Below are positions 1 to 7,573 of a stretch of DNA of 38,563 bases, one piece after another; position 1 is the first letter of the stretch, and each line of letters starts with the position of its first letter. The position numbers and the translations under genes are program-made. This stretch comes from Thermoanaerobaculia bacterium (lineage in GTDB: Bacteria > Acidobacteriota > Thermoanaerobaculia > Thermoanaerobaculales > Sulfomarinibacteraceae), in contig JAMOVQ010000103.1 in the NCBI GenBank assembly GCA_027067575.1, positions 1 to 38,563 of the forward strand. Direction: 5' to 3'. A model generated the notes under the pieces. The model was given only the letters and a program-made list of their open reading frames with translations, was not told the origin of the DNA and did no database searches.

Positions 1-695
1 GCGGAGACGACTTTCTCGTTACTTACTTTCTCGGGGGGAGTTTCCCCGAATAGACCCAGCTGGGGATTGTCTTCATAGGCAATGTCGCGCCACGACTCAT
101 CGCCCCAGAAACTTGTCATCCTGCGAATGCCAGAAGGCCTGACATGTTCTGGGTTGCGCCACAGTGCGTTCCGGTTCATGTCCATGATCGGAAAGTTGAG
201 GAAAATTTCGATGGACCTCATCTTGCCTGCGGTTTCAATGACCTCCCAGTTCAGGTGCAGTCCGTAAGGATCCAGGAGGCACAGCGCTCTCCGGTAGTCC
301 TCATAGCGCACATGTGGAAACACATCGCGAAGAAGCACATCGTTACAGTCACCGTGAAGGATATGAACCCCGGTGCGCTCCCGCACCTCCGGAAAGTTCC
401 TGAGCTGATCGACCTTATCGCCATCGAGATCGACGAGGAAGTACTCGTCGAACGGTGGATCGACATTGAGGGCGTGGAGAGGGCTTCCGGGAACGAACCT
501 GTGAGTGTCACGAGTCCAATGGACGCCTGTCCCTGCGAACCCGTCGATATACACATGGGAGAGCGGCCTCTGCCTCGCCAGAATCCTTGAATACGCACTG
601 GCGTATTTCTTCACGATCTCCAACTTGATCTCGGACCAGTACCCGATTTCGTCGAAGATGAGGTCGCGACCATCCCACCCCGAGACATGATCCAT
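1..695 (-). CDS. tcmP: TcmP family protein (three-Cys-motif partner), 3' end off the window
   Basis: The frame is open from the ATG at 695 to the left edge, about 231 codons with no stop, so the C-terminus is missing. The N-terminus starts MDHVSGWDGRDLIFDEIG. A methyltransferase-like motif, YIDGFAGTG, lies near residues 49-57, a conserved LLDPYG near 145-150, and LNFPIMDMNRNALWRNPE near 170-187. This combination is characteristic of the TcmP family, named for its usual neighbour, a three-Cys-motif (Gp37/Gp68-like) protein. The biochemical role of the family is not established; the glycine motif resembles an AdoMet-binding loop. The gene starts 4 bp after the res stop codon (TAG GGCG ATG), so it is very probably translated from the same mRNA as the type III restriction-modification genes. 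Whether the usual three-Cys partner follows cannot be seen because the window ends here. The family call is confident; its role in this operon is inference. Confidence 0.85.
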   Translation of the reverse strand, partial: MDHVSGWDGRDLIFDEIGYWSEIKLEIVKKYASAYSRILARQRPLSHVYIDGFAGTGVHWTRDTHRFVPGSPLHALNVDPPFDEYFLVDLDGDKVDQLRNFPEVRERTGVHILHGDCNDVLLRDVFPHVRYEDYRRALCLLDPYGLHLNWEVIETAGKMRSIEIFLNFPIMDMNRNALWRNPEHVRPSGIRRMTSFWGDESWRDIAYEDNPQLGLFGETPPEKVSNEKVVS

Positions 696-699
696 CGCC

Positions 700-3357
700 C
701 TACCTCACATCGTCCGCCGAGATCACCACGGCGAAATCCACGTCGAGGTGACGGAAATGAACCATCCCACACCGGATCTTGGCGGCTTCCTCCGGTCTGA
801 GCTTGTCGAGGTTGGTCGTTCCCTTGGTTTCCCGAACCAGGTATACCGTCTCGTCCCGGTCCAGGACAATGGCCCAGTCGGGGTTGTAGTCGCCCACGGG
901 TGTCGGCACCTTGAACCACGCTGGAAGTTTCACGAAGAGCCGAATGTCATGCCGGAGATCGAGCGCCTCGGCGAACCGGCGTTCCGTATCGGACTCGTAC
1001 TCGATCGCCTCGTATACCGATTTTGCCACGTTCACCAGACGCTGCTCGTACGACTCGAACGACGGCTCGAGCTCATCGAGGGCGTACTCGCCCCCGGGCC
1101 CATCGATCCGTTCGTACTTGATCCCCCGGACCATCAATTCGTGGAGCACACCGCGGACGGCCGCAATGGCTCGATCGAGGAACTGTTGCGGGTTGACCAG
1201 CACATCCCCGAGGCGTCCGCTCTGTTGCAGGATCGCCGCCAGCGTCGTTCGCGTGAGATTGGTCTGGCGTTGCAGGTAGGCAAGAATGTCCGGCAACGGC
1301 TGTGATCCCCACTCCGGCGCGGCATCTGCAACGGCCGTCACCGTGGTGGACAGGCCCTGGGCATCGAACCCGAGTCGCGCAGTCCGAGTGACGATCTTCG
1401 GAGCTTCTATGGCAGGCATGTCGCGGATCGCCTGCGCAGCGCGGTCTATGAGATCCTCGGTCGAGTACTCCACCGCGTACCGGGTCCTGTGCTTGATCCG
1501 ATCCCACAGTGCCCTGAAATCATCGTTCAGCTCCTTGCGCCTGACCGTCCGGCGCTCGCGCTTGTTCTTGACTCGCCCCTCGAAGGATTCTCCACAGTCC
1601 TTCTCGATCTCATTCTGGAGCTTCCGCGCGAAGTCCTCGTAGCTCTCGTTGGCGACCACGGTCAGCCGATTGAGCTGCTCGTCATGGCAGCGCTCGCCGT
1701 TCGCCATCACTGGCAGGCGCAGACCACGTCCGATTTCCTGGCGCTTCTTGACCTCCGACTTGGTTTCGTTGAGGGTGCAGATCTGGAAGACGTTGGGGTT
1801 GTCCCAACCCTCACGGAGCGCGGAGTGGCTGAAGATGAATCGCAGCGGCTCCTCCGGCGACAGCAGCCGTTCCTTGTCCCGCATGATCAGCACGTAGGCC
1901 TCGTCGTCCGCCTTCGTGTTGCCGCGCGTGTCCTTCGCGTGGCCCTTCTTGTCCTTGGCGAAGTAGCCGTTGTGGACCTGGTCCACCGGGGGCAGAATCA
2001 AGTCTCGATACACCGGGTCAGCAGCGAGCTGCTCGTACTCCTCGACGAACCACTTCCGGATCTTCCCGTCCTCCGGGACGTAGTTGGCCACCCGGTCGAT
2101 GAAGAACAGCGACAGGACCTTCATCCGCTGCTCCTCGGGGAGCCGACGGATGGCGAGCTCCTTGTCCAGGTGCTCCTTGATGGTCTGGCGGATCTGCACG
2201 CGCATCACGTCGTCGGTGTGCGTCCCGAGTGACTGCCCCTGGTAGACGCGCTGCCCGTTGGTGAAGGCGACGTAGCCGTGCGCCGCGTTGATCTCGCTGA
2301 CGATGTAACCCCGGTAGGTCGCCCGCTCCTTGCTCACGTCGAAGAGGTCCGTGCCGTTCTTGTGGATGGTGACTGTCTTGCGCTTCGGCCCGCCCTTGCC
2401 CAGCACATCGATCTTGAGTTTGGCGACGGGTCCGGACGATCGCGCCTCGATGGAGAGCACCTCGATGTACGGCCTGTTGAAGCCCTCCTCATCGAGCACC
2501 GAATCCACCTCGATGTGCTTGACGAGCTTCATGTCGTAGGCCGCCACAGGGCCCAGGCGGTAGAGGAGGTTGTAGACGTTGCGGTGGGTCGCGGAGTAGC
2601 GCAGCGTGCAGAGCGGGTTCAGGCTGGCGATTGCCGTCTTCGCCTTGTCGCTCTCCATGTTCTGCGGCTCGTCCACGATGACGACGGGGTAGGTGGCCTG
2701 GATGAACTCGATGGGCTTGCGGCCCGACAGGCGGTCCTGCTCCTGGTTCAGGACATTCGTGTCCTTGTTGAAGGCGTCGATGTTGATGATCAGCACCTGG
2801 ATCTGGTTGCTGGAGGCGAACTGGCGCAGCTTCGACACCTGCCTGGAATCGTAGACCCAGGCGTCCACCGGCACCTTGCCGTAGAGCGTCTCGAAGTGCT
2901 CCCGCGTGACCTCGATGTTCTTGAGCACGCCCTCGCGGATGGCCACGCTCGGCACGACGATGATGAACTTCGTGAAGCCGTACCGCTGGTTCAGCTCGTA
3001 GATGGTCCGCAGGTAGACGTAGGTCTTGCCCGTCCCGGTCTCCATCTCGATGGAGAAGTGCGGGATTCCCCCTCGTGGATCCTGGTCCCCGTGGAGACTC
3101 GGCGTTATGAGAAGCGCTGGCTCCGTGTCCTCGTCGTCCTTCCGAATGCCGTTGCGCTCCTGGACACGCCGGAGGTTCTCGGCGAGCGCCTCGACGCTCA
3201 GGACGAGCCGGTTGCCATAGCCGAGCTCGGAGAACAGGGCGCCGGGGGTGCCGATCTCGAACTCGCCCTGGGCCAGAGGCTGCCCCTCGAAGAGATCGAT
3301 GACGGCGTCGATCGCGTCGCGCTGGTACTTGAGGTCGCTCTGAAACCTGAGCTTCAT
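700..3357 (-). CDS. res: Type III restriction endonuclease subunit Res
   Basis: This is a protein of 885 residues, within the usual range of 850-1000 for type III Res. It is the ATP-dependent translocase/nuclease that cleaves DNA with unmethylated sites in complex with Mod. Residues 106-112 read ETGTGKT (Walker A). A VDEPQ motif near residue 227 is the Res version of the DEAD box, and RQEIGRGLRLP near 539 is helicase motif VI. A C-terminal PD-(D/E)XK-like stretch (DYNPDWAIV, then RETKG) near 820-850 is the nuclease. The frame is open for 49 codons further upstream, but that stretch lies inside mod in another frame. MKLRFQSDLKYQRDAI is the natural N-terminus and is preceded by GGGGGC a few bases upstream. 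The gene starts 8 bp after the mod stop and is followed 4 bp later by tcmP. All diagnostic motifs are intact, so the enzyme looks functional. Confidence 0.95.
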   Translation of the reverse strand: MKLRFQSDLKYQRDAIDAVIDLFEGQPLAQGEFEIGTPGALFSELGYGNRLVLSVEALAENLRRVQERNGIRKDDEDTEPALLITPSLHGDQDPRGGIPHFSIEMETGTGKTYVYLRTIYELNQRYGFTKFIIVVPSVAIREGVLKNIEVTREHFETLYGKVPVDAWVYDSRQVSKLRQFASSNQIQVLIINIDAFNKDTNVLNQEQDRLSGRKPIEFIQATYPVVIVDEPQNMESDKAKTAIASLNPLCTLRYSATHRNVYNLLYRLGPVAAYDMKLVKHIEVDSVLDEEGFNRPYIEVLSIEARSSGPVAKLKIDVLGKGGPKRKTVTIHKNGTDLFDVSKERATYRGYIVSEINAAHGYVAFTNGQRVYQGQSLGTHTDDVMRVQIRQTIKEHLDKELAIRRLPEEQRMKVLSLFFIDRVANYVPEDGKIRKWFVEEYEQLAADPVYRDLILPPVDQVHNGYFAKDKKGHAKDTRGNTKADDEAYVLIMRDKERLLSPEEPLRFIFSHSALREGWDNPNVFQICTLNETKSEVKKRQEIGRGLRLPVMANGERCHDEQLNRLTVVANESYEDFARKLQNEIEKDCGESFEGRVKNKRERRTVRRKELNDDFRALWDRIKHRTRYAVEYSTEDLIDRAAQAIRDMPAIEAPKIVTRTARLGFDAQGLSTTVTAVADAAPEWGSQPLPDILAYLQRQTNLTRTTLAAILQQSGRLGDVLVNPQQFLDRAIAAVRGVLHELMVRGIKYERIDGPGGEYALDELEPSFESYEQRLVNVAKSVYEAIEYESDTERRFAEALDLRHDIRLFVKLPAWFKVPTPVGDYNPDWAIVLDRDETVYLVRETKGTTNLDKLRPEEAAKIRCGMVHFRHLDVDFAVVISADDVR

Positions 3358-3365
3358 GGCGCCCC

Positions 3366-5264
3366 CTACACCGTCCGGAAGTGTTCGACGCCGTGCGACT
3401 TCATCTCCAGCACGGTGTTCGTCAGGAGCTGGTCGTTGCCGCGGAAGGCGTGGTCGAGGCAGATCACCATCTGTGGCTTCTTCGCGATCATTGCGCGGAT
3501 ACACTCGCGAGTGATCGGGTCCGCCAGGCAGATGAGGAGCCGGCCGCCCTCGATGGAGAACACCTCCTGGCCGCCGAGCTTAAGCTTCTCCACGGGGGCC
3601 GTGAGCGGGATGCCGGCCTTGAGCATCAGCTCGTACAGGACGGCCTCGGGCTTCGCGCCGGGGACCAGGTTGTCCGCGTAGAGCTCGAGCTGGCGGGCCA
3701 GCTCCTCCTCGGCGTCGGCGGCCGGATTCCAGATCTTGAAGTTGCTGGATGTCAGCTTGTAGGTGCGGAAACCGAGGTCGATGTCGTGGCTTCCGTTCAG
3801 GTCGAGCTTGCCGCCCTGCTCCTCCTTGATGGCTTCGGCGGCAGCCCGCAGCCGGGTCTTCGTAATCTCTGCGATCGTGGGATAGCCTTCGACCTCCGCC
3901 GGCTCGGGCAGCTGGACGAGAATGAACTTGCGGTCGCCGCCATCTTCGGCATTGAGCCGCAAGATCGCTTCGCCTGTGGTGCCTGATCCGGCAAAGAAGT
4001 CTAGGCACGTGTCGCCTGCATCCATCGACAACTTTACAATACGCTTCAAGAGCGACACCGGCTTCGGGTTCTCAAACGTGGCTCCGGTACCAGCCATCAG
4101 CGCGTTGAAGTGGGCCTTAGCCTGCCTATTCTGTTCAAGATCATCCCAGAGCGTCGGCCAGGGCACCTCGGGGGTTTCGGGAGCCACTTCGATGTAGTAC
4201 GGAACCCAACCGTAGTCCCGCTTGATCCACTGTGTGAGACCCGCCGCTTCACGTTCCTCCCATGTATCCTTGCTCAGCACCCACCGACCTTCCCATCCCT
4301 CTGGAGCGACCGGGAAGACTGTCGTACCGTCAGGCGCCGTGAGCGGGTACCACAGGGTGGGCCTATCCTCTCGACGTGCATTCTTGCCGTTCTTTCTGAG
4401 CTGACGCCGTCTGGCGAGACGACCGTCATCAAGACGCAGTGGGTACGCATCAAGAATCTCAGGCTTCGACATCCGGTAGATGCGCCCATTCTCCGCGCTT
4501 CTGCAGTACGCGACGATGTAATCGTGGTATGAGCTGACTGGCCGCGATTCCTCGTTGCGACTCGGGCTGTCCATCTTCTTCCAGATGATGGTCGCGACGA
4601 AGTTCTCCGGCCCGAAGATCTCGTCCATGAGATGCCGCAGGTTGTGCACCTCGTGGTCATCAATCGACACGAAGATCACCCCATCCTCGCGCAGCAGGTT
4701 CCGGGCGAGGAAGAGCCGCGGGTACATCATGCTCAGCCACCTGGAGTGGTAGCGCCCCGAGGTCTCGGTGTTGCTCGAGAGCTTGAGCCCCTCGCCGTCC
4801 ACCTGCCCGGAGTAGCGCAGGTAGTCCTTGAGCCCATCGCGGAAGTTGTCCGGGTAGATGAACTCCTTGCCGGTGTTGTACGGCGGATCGATGTAGATCA
4901 TCTTGATCCTGCCGTGGTAGGCCTTCTGGAGGAGCTTGAGAACCTCGAGGTTGTCGCCCTCGATCATCAGGTTCTCGGTCGAGTCGAAGTCCACCGACTC
5001 CTCGCGCACGGGAGCCAGGGTTCCGACGCTCGGCACCTGGATCGCCCGGATCGCGTCGGCCTTGCCGGCCCAGGTCAAGCCGTAGCGCTCCGGACCCTCG
5101 TCGATCTCCTCCCCGAGAACGAGCTTCAGCTTCTCGAAGTCGACCTTGCCCTCGGCGAACACCTCGGGAAAGAGCTGACGCAAGCCATCCATGCGCTCGG
5201 CAACGATGTCTGCGGAGGTGAGGGGCATTCTCGTTTCGACGCGGGATACCTGTTTCTTCGTCAT
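3366..5264 (-). CDS. mod: Type III restriction-modification DNA methyltransferase Mod (N6-adenine, beta class)
   Basis: This 632-residue protein methylates adenine on one strand of an asymmetric site and supplies sequence recognition for Res. The catalytic motif DPPY is at 126-129 (YIDPPYNTGKEF). The AdoMet-binding motif FAGSGTT is near residue 420. The order, catalytic motif before AdoMet motif, is that of beta-class enzymes, as in type III Mod proteins. The target-recognition region lies between the two motifs (about 200-390). Its codon use is less GC-rich than the flanks (about 4000-4600), as expected for a fast-evolving recognition domain. The start MTKKQVSRVETRMP is chosen because its ATG overlaps the antitoxin stop (ATGA); an open frame upstream lies inside the antitoxin gene. 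Tight coupling to the upstream toxin-antitoxin pair is the unusual part. Confidence 0.95.
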   Translation of the reverse strand: MTKKQVSRVETRMPLTSADIVAERMDGLRQLFPEVFAEGKVDFEKLKLVLGEEIDEGPERYGLTWAGKADAIRAIQVPSVGTLAPVREESVDFDSTENLMIEGDNLEVLKLLQKAYHGRIKMIYIDPPYNTGKEFIYPDNFRDGLKDYLRYSGQVDGEGLKLSSNTETSGRYHSRWLSMMYPRLFLARNLLREDGVIFVSIDDHEVHNLRHLMDEIFGPENFVATIIWKKMDSPSRNEESRPVSSYHDYIVAYCRSAENGRIYRMSKPEILDAYPLRLDDGRLARRRQLRKNGKNARREDRPTLWYPLTAPDGTTVFPVAPEGWEGRWVLSKDTWEEREAAGLTQWIKRDYGWVPYYIEVAPETPEVPWPTLWDDLEQNRQAKAHFNALMAGTGATFENPKPVSLLKRIVKLSMDAGDTCLDFFAGSGTTGEAILRLNAEDGGDRKFILVQLPEPAEVEGYPTIAEITKTRLRAAAEAIKEEQGGKLDLNGSHDIDLGFRTYKLTSSNFKIWNPAADAEEELARQLELYADNLVPGAKPEAVLYELMLKAGIPLTAPVEKLKLGGQEVFSIEGGRLLICLADPITRECIRAMIAKKPQMVICLDHAFRGNDQLLTNTVLEMKSHGVEHFRTV

Positions 5265-6364
5265 TTCTGCTCCCCTGCCCACTGGTACCGGATTTTCAGG
5301 CCGTTCAGGTGGCTGAACGGGATGATGCCGTCGTGCTGCAAGCGACCGACCAGGATCCCTGGGGCGATTCCAAGTCGTCGAGCAACCTCTCGAACCTGTT
5401 CCTCGGAAATGGCGCCGGGAACAAGATCCCCCAGAACGCGAGCGTCGGGAACGAGCGTCCTGTTGGCAAAGGCGTCGGCCTCCCGCTCCCTCTCCTCGTC
5501 CAGCCCCTGGATCCCCTTCCCCTCGATGAATCGCAGCTTCTTTCCGTGCCGGACCAGGTGTCCCAACTCGTGGAAGAAAGAGAACCAGAGGTGGTCGTTC
5601 GTCCTGTAGCGAAGGCTCAGTGCCAGGACGGCCCGGTCCGGGGCCGCCCACCAGGTCGCACCCGAGGCGGGACAGCCCCTGGGTGCGGGCACGAAGACCA
5701 CCGCCACACCGCACCGTGCGCAGATCTCTCGCAGGCGGGGAATGAACGCCTCCGGATCGACCTCGTTCGTCAACCCCCGCAACGCTGGTATGGCACGAGA
5801 CAGGGCCTCCCGATCGAAGGGCTCGAGGCGCAGCTCCTGCGCTTCCACCTCGGCCCGGCGCAGCCAGGCCGACACGGCGCCGCGTTTCCTGGCAATGGTA
5901 TTCGAGGCTCGAAACGCAGGCACCAGGTTCTCGACCAGCTCAGACCACGCATCCACGCTGGCCACGCCGAAGAAGCGCAGCAACTCGATCACCTGTCGTG
6001 GCTTGTCGCGGGGATGCCGGCGAATCCACCCGAACGCGGCCATGTCGGCCAGCGGGAATTCCTTCAGCCAGTCCGTGTACCCGGCGGCCTCGTCGAGCAT
6101 CTTCTTTCGAGCCAGGTCCTCGCGGTACTCCATCTCGCGCCGGAGCCAAAACCTGGCCGGCGCGCCCAGAACAGCCTCCAGCTTGAGGGCCGTCTCTGCC
6201 GTGATCGCCACCTTGCCCTTGATCAGCCCGTTGACGTGCTTCTTGCTGAAACCGGAGCGCTCGGCCAACTCGGCCTGGGTCATGCCGAGCTCCTCCAGTG
6301 CATCCGCGATGGTGTCTCCCGGTGGTGACACCCAGTCGCACTCGAACCGTGGTGTGTCAATCAT
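5261..6364 (-). CDS. HigA-like antitoxin / XRE regulator with ImmA/IrrE metallopeptidase domain
   Basis: The protein has 367 residues. Residues about 15-75 form a HigA-type helix-turn-helix (GMTQAELAERSGFSKKHVNGLIKGK, given here only as a landmark split into MTQAELAERSGFS and KKHVNGLIKG). The C-terminal half (about 180-340) is an ImmA/IrrE (DUF955) zinc-peptidase domain with FFHELGHLVRH near residue 264, including the HExxH zinc motif, and a downstream glutamate-rich EEREREADAFAN that supplies the third ligand. Plain HigA antitoxins are about 90-110 residues, so this is the long, peptidase-fused form. It overlaps the toxin gene by 8 bp and its TGA overlaps the mod ATG. By family knowledge it should bind the shared promoter and neutralise the toxin. 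Control of the downstream restriction genes by DNA binding or self-cleavage is inference. Confidence 0.88.
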   Translation of the reverse strand: MIDTPRFECDWVSPPGDTIADALEELGMTQAELAERSGFSKKHVNGLIKGKVAITAETALKLEAVLGAPARFWLRREMEYREDLARKKMLDEAAGYTDWLKEFPLADMAAFGWIRRHPRDKPRQVIELLRFFGVASVDAWSELVENLVPAFRASNTIARKRGAVSAWLRRAEVEAQELRLEPFDREALSRAIPALRGLTNEVDPEAFIPRLREICARCGVAVVFVPAPRGCPASGATWWAAPDRAVLALSLRYRTNDHLWFSFFHELGHLVRHGKKLRFIEGKGIQGLDEEREREADAFANRTLVPDARVLGDLVPGAISEEQVREVARRLGIAPGILVGRLQHDGIIPFSHLNGLKIRYQWAGEQK

Positions 6365-6686
6365 GGTAGTCTCCGATGAAGACGATCCGGACCACTGTCA
6401 CCCGATCCCATTCGATACTTCCATCAACCCCTCGGGGAACAGGATCGTTCGCCGCCTCCAGGACGAGTCGCTTTCCACCAGAGAGGTCGAGAGCGAGACA
6501 ACCCGCGAGGTCACCCCGCAACGGATGGGGTCTTCCAACCCGGATCTCCTGCATGCATCCGGCTGCCGAGAGGTCCTTGAGGCGGGCGCGAAGCTTGCGA
6601 GCACACGGCGTACCCAGCTCGCGGTTCATTCTTCGCTCCTCCCTGCAAAGCCGCTCCAGCTTGTCATCCTTGAACAAAATATCCAT
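6357..6686 (-). CDS. HigB/RelE-type toxin (type II toxin-antitoxin)
   Basis: This 109-residue protein begins MDILFKDDKLERLCREER. The N-terminal FKDDKLERLC pattern, a central basic segment (KLRARLKDLSAAG) and a C-terminal WDRVTVVRIVFIGDYHD resemble the HigB/plasmid-maintenance killer branch of the RelE superfamily, whose members cleave mRNA on the ribosome. The toxin gene comes before the antitoxin, as is usual for higBA. The ATG at 6686 keeps the conserved N-terminus. No good Shine-Dalgarno is seen immediately upstream, and a TTGACA at 6700-6705 is too close to the start to serve as a normal -35 box. This is the first gene of the five-gene minus-strand operon. The substrate and toxicity are inferred from family only. 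Confidence 0.85.
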   Translation of the reverse strand: MDILFKDDKLERLCREERRMNRELGTPCARKLRARLKDLSAAGCMQEIRVGRPHPLRGDLAGCLALDLSGGKRLVLEAANDPVPRGVDGSIEWDRVTVVRIVFIGDYHD

Positions 6687-6710
6687 CCGGGCAGCCTCAT
6701 GTCAAGAAAC

Positions 6711-7034
6711 TCATACACCTATCAGGTTCATCAAAAGGGGCCTCCTCTGGTTCGCCATCTTCGATGGGTGGGCGTGGTTCCTCGGATCGCTCTTCTGGCG
6801 GTCACCCATTGCCAAGTCTTCGAAACCGTGCCGGAACCCTTGCCAGGGTTGCGAGGTCAATATCGAGCAAAGCGTCCCCGGCGCAGGTGCGGCCACAGGA
6901 ACGTGATCCCATGCGGGAAGCTTTGAATTTCCGAGCATGTGCTGCTTGAGCCAATAGGCGCCAATACGCACGGATTTCGGCGACATGCCGGGAACCCGGG
7001 GCAGTGTGTCCGGTTTCTCCACGCTCCCCATCAT
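6711..7034 (-). CDS. Hypothetical small protein with strong ribosome binding site (doubtful)
   Basis: An open frame of about 107 codons starts at tandem ATGs (7034 and 7031), preceded by AGGAGG 4-7 bp upstream. It ends 25 bp before the toxin gene start, on the same strand. The predicted product (MGSVEKPDTLPRVPGMSP...) has no motif, membrane segment or family that I recognise. The composition is mixed and could be a decayed gene. It is reported because the Shine-Dalgarno match is much better than chance would usually give and because it lies just upstream of the defence operon. It could be the first gene of that operon, a leader reading frame, or noise. Confidence 0.3.
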   Translation of the reverse strand: MMGSVEKPDTLPRVPGMSPKSVRIGAYWLKQHMLGNSKLPAWDHVPVAAPAPGTLCSILTSQPWQGFRHGFEDLAMGDRQKSDPRNHAHPSKMANQRRPLLMNLIGV

Positions 7035-7089: not shown

Positions 7090-7335
7090 CTTCCGGAACG
7101 GGCCTCCGGGACCGGCTCGACGCTCGCCTCGGAGTCCATGGACGTGGGGGCGCACCGGCTCGTGCAGATCGACCGCCTGGCCGAGCGGTGGAACATGCCG
7201 GCGGCCGATGCCGTCCTCGCCAGCGTCAGCGCCTCGAGCGGCCACATCTACTACGCCTACGCCTCGGTTGTCCGGAACGACACGGGGGACGCCACCTTCG
7301 TCTTCGGCACCGCGCCGAACACGGGCCCGAACTGA
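7090..7335 (+). pseudogene. 3' remnant of a secreted protein gene
   Basis: An open plus-strand frame runs through 7090-7335 without a credible start region (an ATG at 7138 has no ribosome site). The last part reads SGHIYYAYASVVRNDTGDAT and ends FGTAPNTGPN-stop. An AYASV-(V/I)-x-N-x-(T/S)-GD ending is a pattern I associate with the C-termini of large secreted beta-rich proteins in Acidobacteria-like genomes. It is therefore best explained as the surviving 3' end of such a gene rather than a complete small gene. No other part of the parent gene can be seen upstream. This is a family impression, not a search result. Confidence 0.35.
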
Positions 7336-7498: not shown

Positions 7499-7573
7499 TG
7501 GCTCCGGAGGAGGGATTTGAACCCCCAACCTAGTGGTTAACAGCCACCCGCTCTACCATTGAGCTACTCCGGA
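7499..7573 (-). tRNA. tRNA-Asn (anticodon GTT)
   Basis: Read on the minus strand it starts TCCGGAGTAGCTCAATGG and ends CTCCGGAGCCA. The 7-bp acceptor stem pairs perfectly (TCCGGAG/CTCCGGA), and the T-loop GGTTCAAATC is standard. The anticodon loop in GGTGGCTGTTAACCACT places GTT in the anticodon. The CCA end is encoded. Length is 75 nt. Confidence 0.96.

What the first reader, a model, noticed from the sequence alone, without database searches (positions are those of the whole stretch)
1..6686. Toxin-antitoxin, type III restriction-modification and TcmP genes in one coupled operon
Five minus-strand genes are joined by an 8-bp overlap, an ATGA overlap, an 8-bp gap and a 4-bp gap: HigB-like toxin, HigA-ImmA protein, Mod, Res, TcmP. 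Toxin-antitoxin control wired directly into a restriction operon would couple loss or damage of the restriction system to toxicity, or let the antitoxin's peptidase domain set restriction expression. Gene identities are from motifs; the joint function is inference.
Basis: partly seen in the sequence, partly recalled or inferred. Interest (0 to 1): 0.75.

Follow-up and report, generated by a model that had tools for sequence, protein, structure and literature searches.

The report
Toxin-controller cassette heading a restriction operon
A portable toxin-plus-protease-repressor cassette, with its own conserved DNA switch, sits at the head of a bacterial restriction operon; the same cassette recurs in front of, or inside, many other restriction and defence operons, so it may let bacteria switch DNA-cutting defences and a growth-stopping toxin from one signal.

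Summary
In detail: five minus-strand genes with the stated junctions (8-bp overlap, ATGA overlap, 8-bp gap, 4-bp gap) encode HigB, HigA fused to an ImmA/CapP-like peptidase, Mod, Res and TcmP. TcmP is cut by the contig end. The five-gene set is not a conserved unit: the nearest HigBA relative (67%) has no restriction genes, 14 Mod matches in 13 other genomes of the phylum lack HigA nearby, and TcmP was not found near HigBA elsewhere. However, the HigB-HigA/ImmA pair (HigB detected in 72 of 80 loci) is a travelling cassette that recurs next to Type I, MmeI-, BglII- and Eco57I-like and Type III restriction genes (15 of 80 genome loci; none seen beside 30 classical HigBA loci), gained at least seven times. 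A palindrome (RTTWACC-N5-GGTWAAY) lies about 40 bp upstream of higB in 69 of 74 loci; the window has a degenerate copy at 6713-6731, its only match in the window. Best reading: an autoregulated toxin-antitoxin controller (PD-lambda-2 AB-like) whose promoter also drives what lies downstream, here Mod-Res. Repression, proteolytic release and a DNA-damage signal are inferred from HigA, CapP and PprI. New variant of a known kind.

The parts
6357..6686 (-). HigB-like RelE-fold protein, 109 aa; His54 and Asp106-Tyr107-His108 kept
5261..6364 (-). HigA-type HTH fused to ImmA/IrrE (M78, CapP-like) peptidase, 367 aa, HELGH motif at residues 265-269
6713..6731 (-). operator-like palindrome ATGAACC-TGATA-GGTGTAT, 27-45 bp upstream of higB; degenerate copy of a family-wide motif
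3366..5264 (-). Type III modification methyltransferase (Mod), 632 aa; IDPPYNTG and FAGSG motifs present
700..3357 (-). Type III restriction subunit (Res), 885 aa; TGTGKT motif and C-terminal endonuclease domain with ETK
3..695 (-). three-Cys-motif partner protein TcmP, cut by the contig end
7499..7573 (-). tRNA-Asn (GTT), possible boundary of the acquired block; also just upstream of the nearest HigBA relative

Best explanation
The HigB and HigA-ImmA genes form a mobile, self-regulating toxin-antitoxin controller cassette of the PD-lambda-2 AB type that has been placed at the head of a Type III restriction operon. In the resting state HigA-ImmA, alone or with HigB, binds the palindrome just upstream of higB and keeps the shared promoter low, so HigB, Mod, Res and TcmP are made at a set level from one transcript. 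When the CapP-like peptidase domain is triggered (single-stranded DNA from damage or phage attack is the likeliest signal, by analogy with CapP and PprI), the HTH part is cut or released, transcription of the whole operon rises and the HigBA complex is disturbed, so restriction and growth arrest are raised together. Shown here: anatomy, junctions, intact motifs, HigB and HigA folds, family-wide operator-like motif, recurrence with restriction systems. Inferred: the common transcript, repression by HigA, proteolytic trigger, the signal, and which protein is toxic.
For: Tight junctions in one direction. HigB model matches P. vulgaris HigB; the HigA-ImmA model matches HigA in its HTH (6chv, 2ict) and CapP (7t5t) in its peptidase half. 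The palindrome lies about 40 bp upstream of higB in 69 of 74 loci against 6 in shuffles; its TTAAC/GTTAA halves equal the published P. aeruginosa HigA operator halves (PMC6987408); no second strong copy was found in 924 kb of loci, so the repressor should act on this promoter and what follows it. The window's copy is the only site of its score in 38.5 kb and lies at the right spot; background rate 17 per 924,475 bases, so about 5e-4 for a 25-bp target zone. When the next gene is co-directional within 130 bp of HigA, 11 of 27 are restriction genes and 7 more look like defence or nuclease genes (annotation). [quoted passage not shown]
Against: No expression or binding data. The window's operator is degenerate (8 of 12 core bases; score 9.7 against a family median of 23.4). 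In some restriction-linked loci the restriction gene lies upstream of the cassette (L037, L076, L097), where this promoter would not drive it. About half of the loci have no close co-directional gene downstream, so the cassette also works alone. Restriction linkage is scattered on the tree and not conserved between near relatives. The only sigma-70-like match near higB would start transcription inside higB, so the promoter itself is not identified. The HigBA complex was not modelled.
Confidence: 0.55

Rival explanations
1. Defence-island stacking. HigB-HigA/ImmA is a separate anti-phage or selfish toxin-antitoxin unit that landed upstream of a separate Type III system; the overlaps reflect compact insertion and the genes share a transcript without shared function.
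For: The nearest HigBA relative (67%, L033) has Fic and transglutaminase genes downstream, not restriction genes. Closely related cassettes sit beside different partners (L039-L043, L034-L036). None of 14 Mod matches in 13 other genomes of the phylum has HigA within the fetched flanks. The block follows a tRNA-Asn, a common insertion point.
Against: Restriction linkage (15 of 80) is not seen beside 30 classical HigBA loci (Fisher p 0.006); junctions of 30 bp or less are mostly to restriction or defence genes (10 of 13); the operator-like motif stays upstream of higB in restriction-embedded copies.
Confidence: 0.3
2. Addiction or guard. The toxin-antitoxin pair protects the restriction operon: loss of the operon, or phage proteins that inhibit it, frees the toxin and stops the cell.
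For: Toxin-antitoxin genes stabilise linked DNA in general (established knowledge); HigB keeps His54 and the Asp-Tyr-His end; DarTG2 is embedded in a Type I system in EPEC (PMC12255303).
Against: In PD-lambda-2 the HTH-peptidase protein is toxic and the HigB-like one protects (PMC9519451), the reverse of simple HigBA addiction; partner genes turn over rapidly, so no restriction system is durably guarded.
Confidence: 0.1
3. Repurposed, non-toxic controller. HigB is only a co-repressor of HigA-ImmA and the pair is purely a transcription switch for adjacent operons.
For: HigB-like protein rescues toxicity in PD-lambda-2; RefSeq names one such small gene 'killer suppression protein'; the operator-like motif is strongly kept.
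Against: HigB catalytic-type residues are nearly invariant in 53 sequences, unlikely for a mere co-repressor.
Confidence: 0.05

Closest known systems
PD-lambda-2 (Vassallo et al. 2022, PMC9519451)
   Same: HigB-like gene followed by HigA HTH fused to an ImmA/IrrE peptidase; HigA-ImmA hits PADLOC PD-Lambda-2_B at 1e-31.
   Different: PD-lambda-2 has a third gene, C, required for defence; here Mod, Res and TcmP follow instead and no C was identified.
Xre-COG2856 fusion with RelE (Makarova et al. 2009, PMC2701414)
   Same: The two-gene arrangement and the proposal that the protease cuts an Xre repressor/antitoxin.
   Different: The passages read do not mention coupling to restriction operons or an operator.
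Controllers CapW/BrxR, CapH-CapP, CapK-CapS (PMC13373217) and PprI-DdrO (PMC10904395)
   Same: Promoter-proximal regulator ahead of varied immune operons; CapP-like peptidase fold.
   Different: HTH and peptidase are one protein here, and a HigB toxin gene is added. VapKSC in the same paper is a toxin-bearing relative of CapK-CapS.
RptR-DarTG2-Type I RM island of EPEC (PMC12255303)
   Same: A toxin-antitoxin pair inside a restriction operon under one repressed promoter.
   Different: There the repressor RptR is separate from the DarTG2 pair, and the restriction system is Type I.
Classical HigBA
   Same: HigB and HigA folds, gene order, palindromic operator with TTAAC half-sites.
   Different: HigA here carries the extra peptidase and linking domain, and the family adjoins restriction genes.

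Membership tests
HigB (RelE superfamily) | HigB fold | tested here: met
   AF2 pLDDT 94, best PDB matches P. vulgaris HigB, TM 0.6-0.7; PDB profile hits E 1e-5 to 6e-7
HigB (RelE superfamily) | ribosome-dependent RNase activity or toxicity | not testable with these tools
   only residue conservation seen
HigA-ImmA / PD-lambda-2 B | HigA HTH plus M78 peptidase with HEXXH | tested here: met
PD-lambda-2 system | third component C | tested here: not met
   next genes are Mod, Res, TcmP; so AB-like only
Type III restriction-modification | adjacent Mod (N6 MTase) and Res (helicase plus endonuclease) | tested here: met
   motifs read
Type III restriction-modification | active restriction and methylation of a target site | not testable with these tools
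   no methylome or assay
TcmP | TIGR04474 match | tested here: met
   159 bits, cut-off 53
TcmP with three-Cys partner | partner gene (PF07505) | tested here: inconclusive
   no hit in the genome, but the contig ends inside TcmP
Controllers of adjacent immune operons (Cap type) | HTH protein with an operator-like site, promoter-proximal to varied immune operons | tested here: met
   by gene order and motif only; repression itself not shown
Controllers of adjacent immune operons (Cap type) | ssDNA-triggered derepression | not testable with these tools
   inferred from CapP and PprI only

The most novel reading that the evidence does not exclude
HigB-HigA/ImmA is a widespread plug-in controller: one fused repressor-protease with its own operator, inherited by any restriction or defence operon it lands in, raising restriction and a growth-stopping toxin together on a DNA-damage signal.
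Probability: 0.35. Interest if true: 0.75.

Novelty: new variant of a known kind. Interest (0 to 1): 0.55.

Why it matters
How restriction systems are kept quiet and then raised during attack is poorly known outside C proteins, BrxR/CapW and RptR. If this cassette is a controller, one conserved 19-bp operator and one protein family would explain the regulation of Type I, II and III systems in many phyla, and would link first-line restriction to growth arrest. The operator makes the idea directly testable.

Tried and rejected
Conserved five-gene operon: rejected. Additional operators upstream of other restriction genes: none above threshold in 924 kb. The TTGACA hexamer at 6705 as the higB promoter: the start site would fall inside higB, so not used. 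A second copy of the tRNA-Asn 3' end as an attachment repeat: none in the assembly. Three-Cys partner of TcmP in the genome: none. One literature query failed on a sign and was not repeated in that form. The pooled control scan lists only 25 of 43 families, so 'none' in the control is a reading of the best matches.

Full report
Observation. HMM libraries name TcmP, Res, Mod and a HigA-peptidase fusion; the last is closest to PADLOC's PD-Lambda-2_B. The small first gene has no hit in those libraries, but a 53-sequence alignment gives a confident model (pLDDT 94) whose best PDB matches are P. vulgaris HigB, and a profile search of PDB sequences finds the same proteins. His54 and the final Asp-Tyr-His are kept; His54, Asp106 and His108 are nearly invariant in the family, and the PDB holds P. 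vulgaris HigB variants changed at the corresponding tail (Y91A, delta-H92). The fusion's model (pLDDT 90) matches HigA in the HTH and CapP in the peptidase half. The window begins at a contig end, so TcmP is incomplete.

Is the set conserved? No. Eighty genome loci of the HigA-ImmA family were taken. A HigB homologue was detected by BLAST upstream in 72, so the pair is a stable unit; the rest may be undetected or cut by contig ends. The Mod and Res partners change. The closest relative (L033, 67%) is followed by a Fic and a transglutaminase gene. In 297 genomes of the phylum, the 14 Mod matches in 13 genomes other than the window's lack HigA in their flanks of about 1.5 kb, and TcmP relatives lie near neither HigBA nor, with one weak exception, Mod.

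Is the link with restriction more than chance? Probably. Gene calling plus Pfam shows restriction genes next to the pair in the same direction, most within 250 bp, in 15 of 80 loci: Type I (L037, L038, L048, L052, L057, L078, L080, L093), MmeI (L035), BglII (L041), Eco57I-like (L076, L097), an HsdR-like helicase (L034) and Type III (L043; L091 after one small gene, 470 bp away). Annotated plasmids add HigBA-HsdS (L129) and M-S-DUF262-HigBA-Fic (L164). Thirty classical HigBA loci from the phylum gave 22 co-directional neighbours with no restriction family among the best-matched ones. A Fisher test of 15/80 against 0/30 gives p 0.006; the two samples differ in taxonomy and flank length, so this is indicative. 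On the HigA tree the restriction label needs 15 changes, at least 7 forced by well supported branches, and is not clustered: the pair has repeatedly come to lie in restriction operons.

Operator. Comparing the sequence upstream of higB exposed a palindrome, RTTWACC-N5-GGTWAAY, whose core starts about 40 bp before the start codon. It scores at least 9 of 12 in 69 of 74 loci, against a mean of 6 loci in shuffled sequence. The restriction-linked loci with enough upstream sequence keep it. No other copy above threshold was found in the 924 kb of these loci. The P. aeruginosa HigA operator has the same TTAAC/GTTAA half-sites (PMC6987408). The window has a weak copy, ATGAACCTGATAGGTGTAT at 6713-6731, the only site of that score in the window and at the expected place; its nearest relative has GTTCACTTGTTAGGTGAAC. 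Because the cassette heads the operon, whatever controls this promoter should control Mod and Res if they share its transcript.

Mechanism. The inference is that HigA-ImmA represses the promoter and its peptidase relieves repression. CapH-CapP and PprI-DdrO work so, with ssDNA as signal (PMC10904395), and Cap-type controllers stand ahead of varied immune operons (PMC13373217). Direction of toxicity is open: in PD-lambda-2 the HTH-peptidase protein was toxic alone and the HigB-like protein rescued (PMC9519451). A toxin-antitoxin pair embedded in a restriction operon is itself not new (DarTG2 under RptR; PMC12255303), and the HTH-protease/RelE pair was predicted in 2009 (PMC2701414). What I did not find described in the papers searched is the repeated association of HigB-HigA/ImmA with restriction systems of several types and its family-wide operator; the library holds only open-licence papers, so this is not proof of absence.

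Verdict. Real and partly correctly read. The specific five-gene circuit is a local assembly; the general theme, a toxin-antitoxin controller that plugs into restriction operons, is supported by recurrence and by the operator-like motif, and awaits binding and expression tests.

Noticed in passing
window 7499-7573; L033 9396-9470: A tRNA-Asn gene lies upstream of the HigBA cassette in both the window and its nearest relative, while other lexA loci of the family have no tRNA-Asn there; possible insertion point, but no second attachment copy found.
   Followed up: partly
window 1-664; L234 8383-9046: TcmP is 97% identical in DNA to a copy in another genus of the family (G286), where LexA is only 63% identical in protein; both contigs end inside the gene. 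Recent transfer is likely.
   Followed up: partly
L100, L111, L130, L165, L166, L168, L170, L171, L173: A distinct group in which HigA-ImmA faces a conserved gene of about 310 aa and a thymidylate synthase relative, convergent with it, in several phyla; the higB operator was not found in those tested.
   Followed up: partly
L045, L051, L074: HigBA cassette directly followed by SIR2-HerA, HerA-NurA and NurA genes.
   Followed up: no
window 7258-7332; G000 contig C43 3794-3868: A 75-bp stretch between tRNA-Asn and higB is 84% identical to another contig of the genome, perhaps a gene remnant.
   Followed up: no
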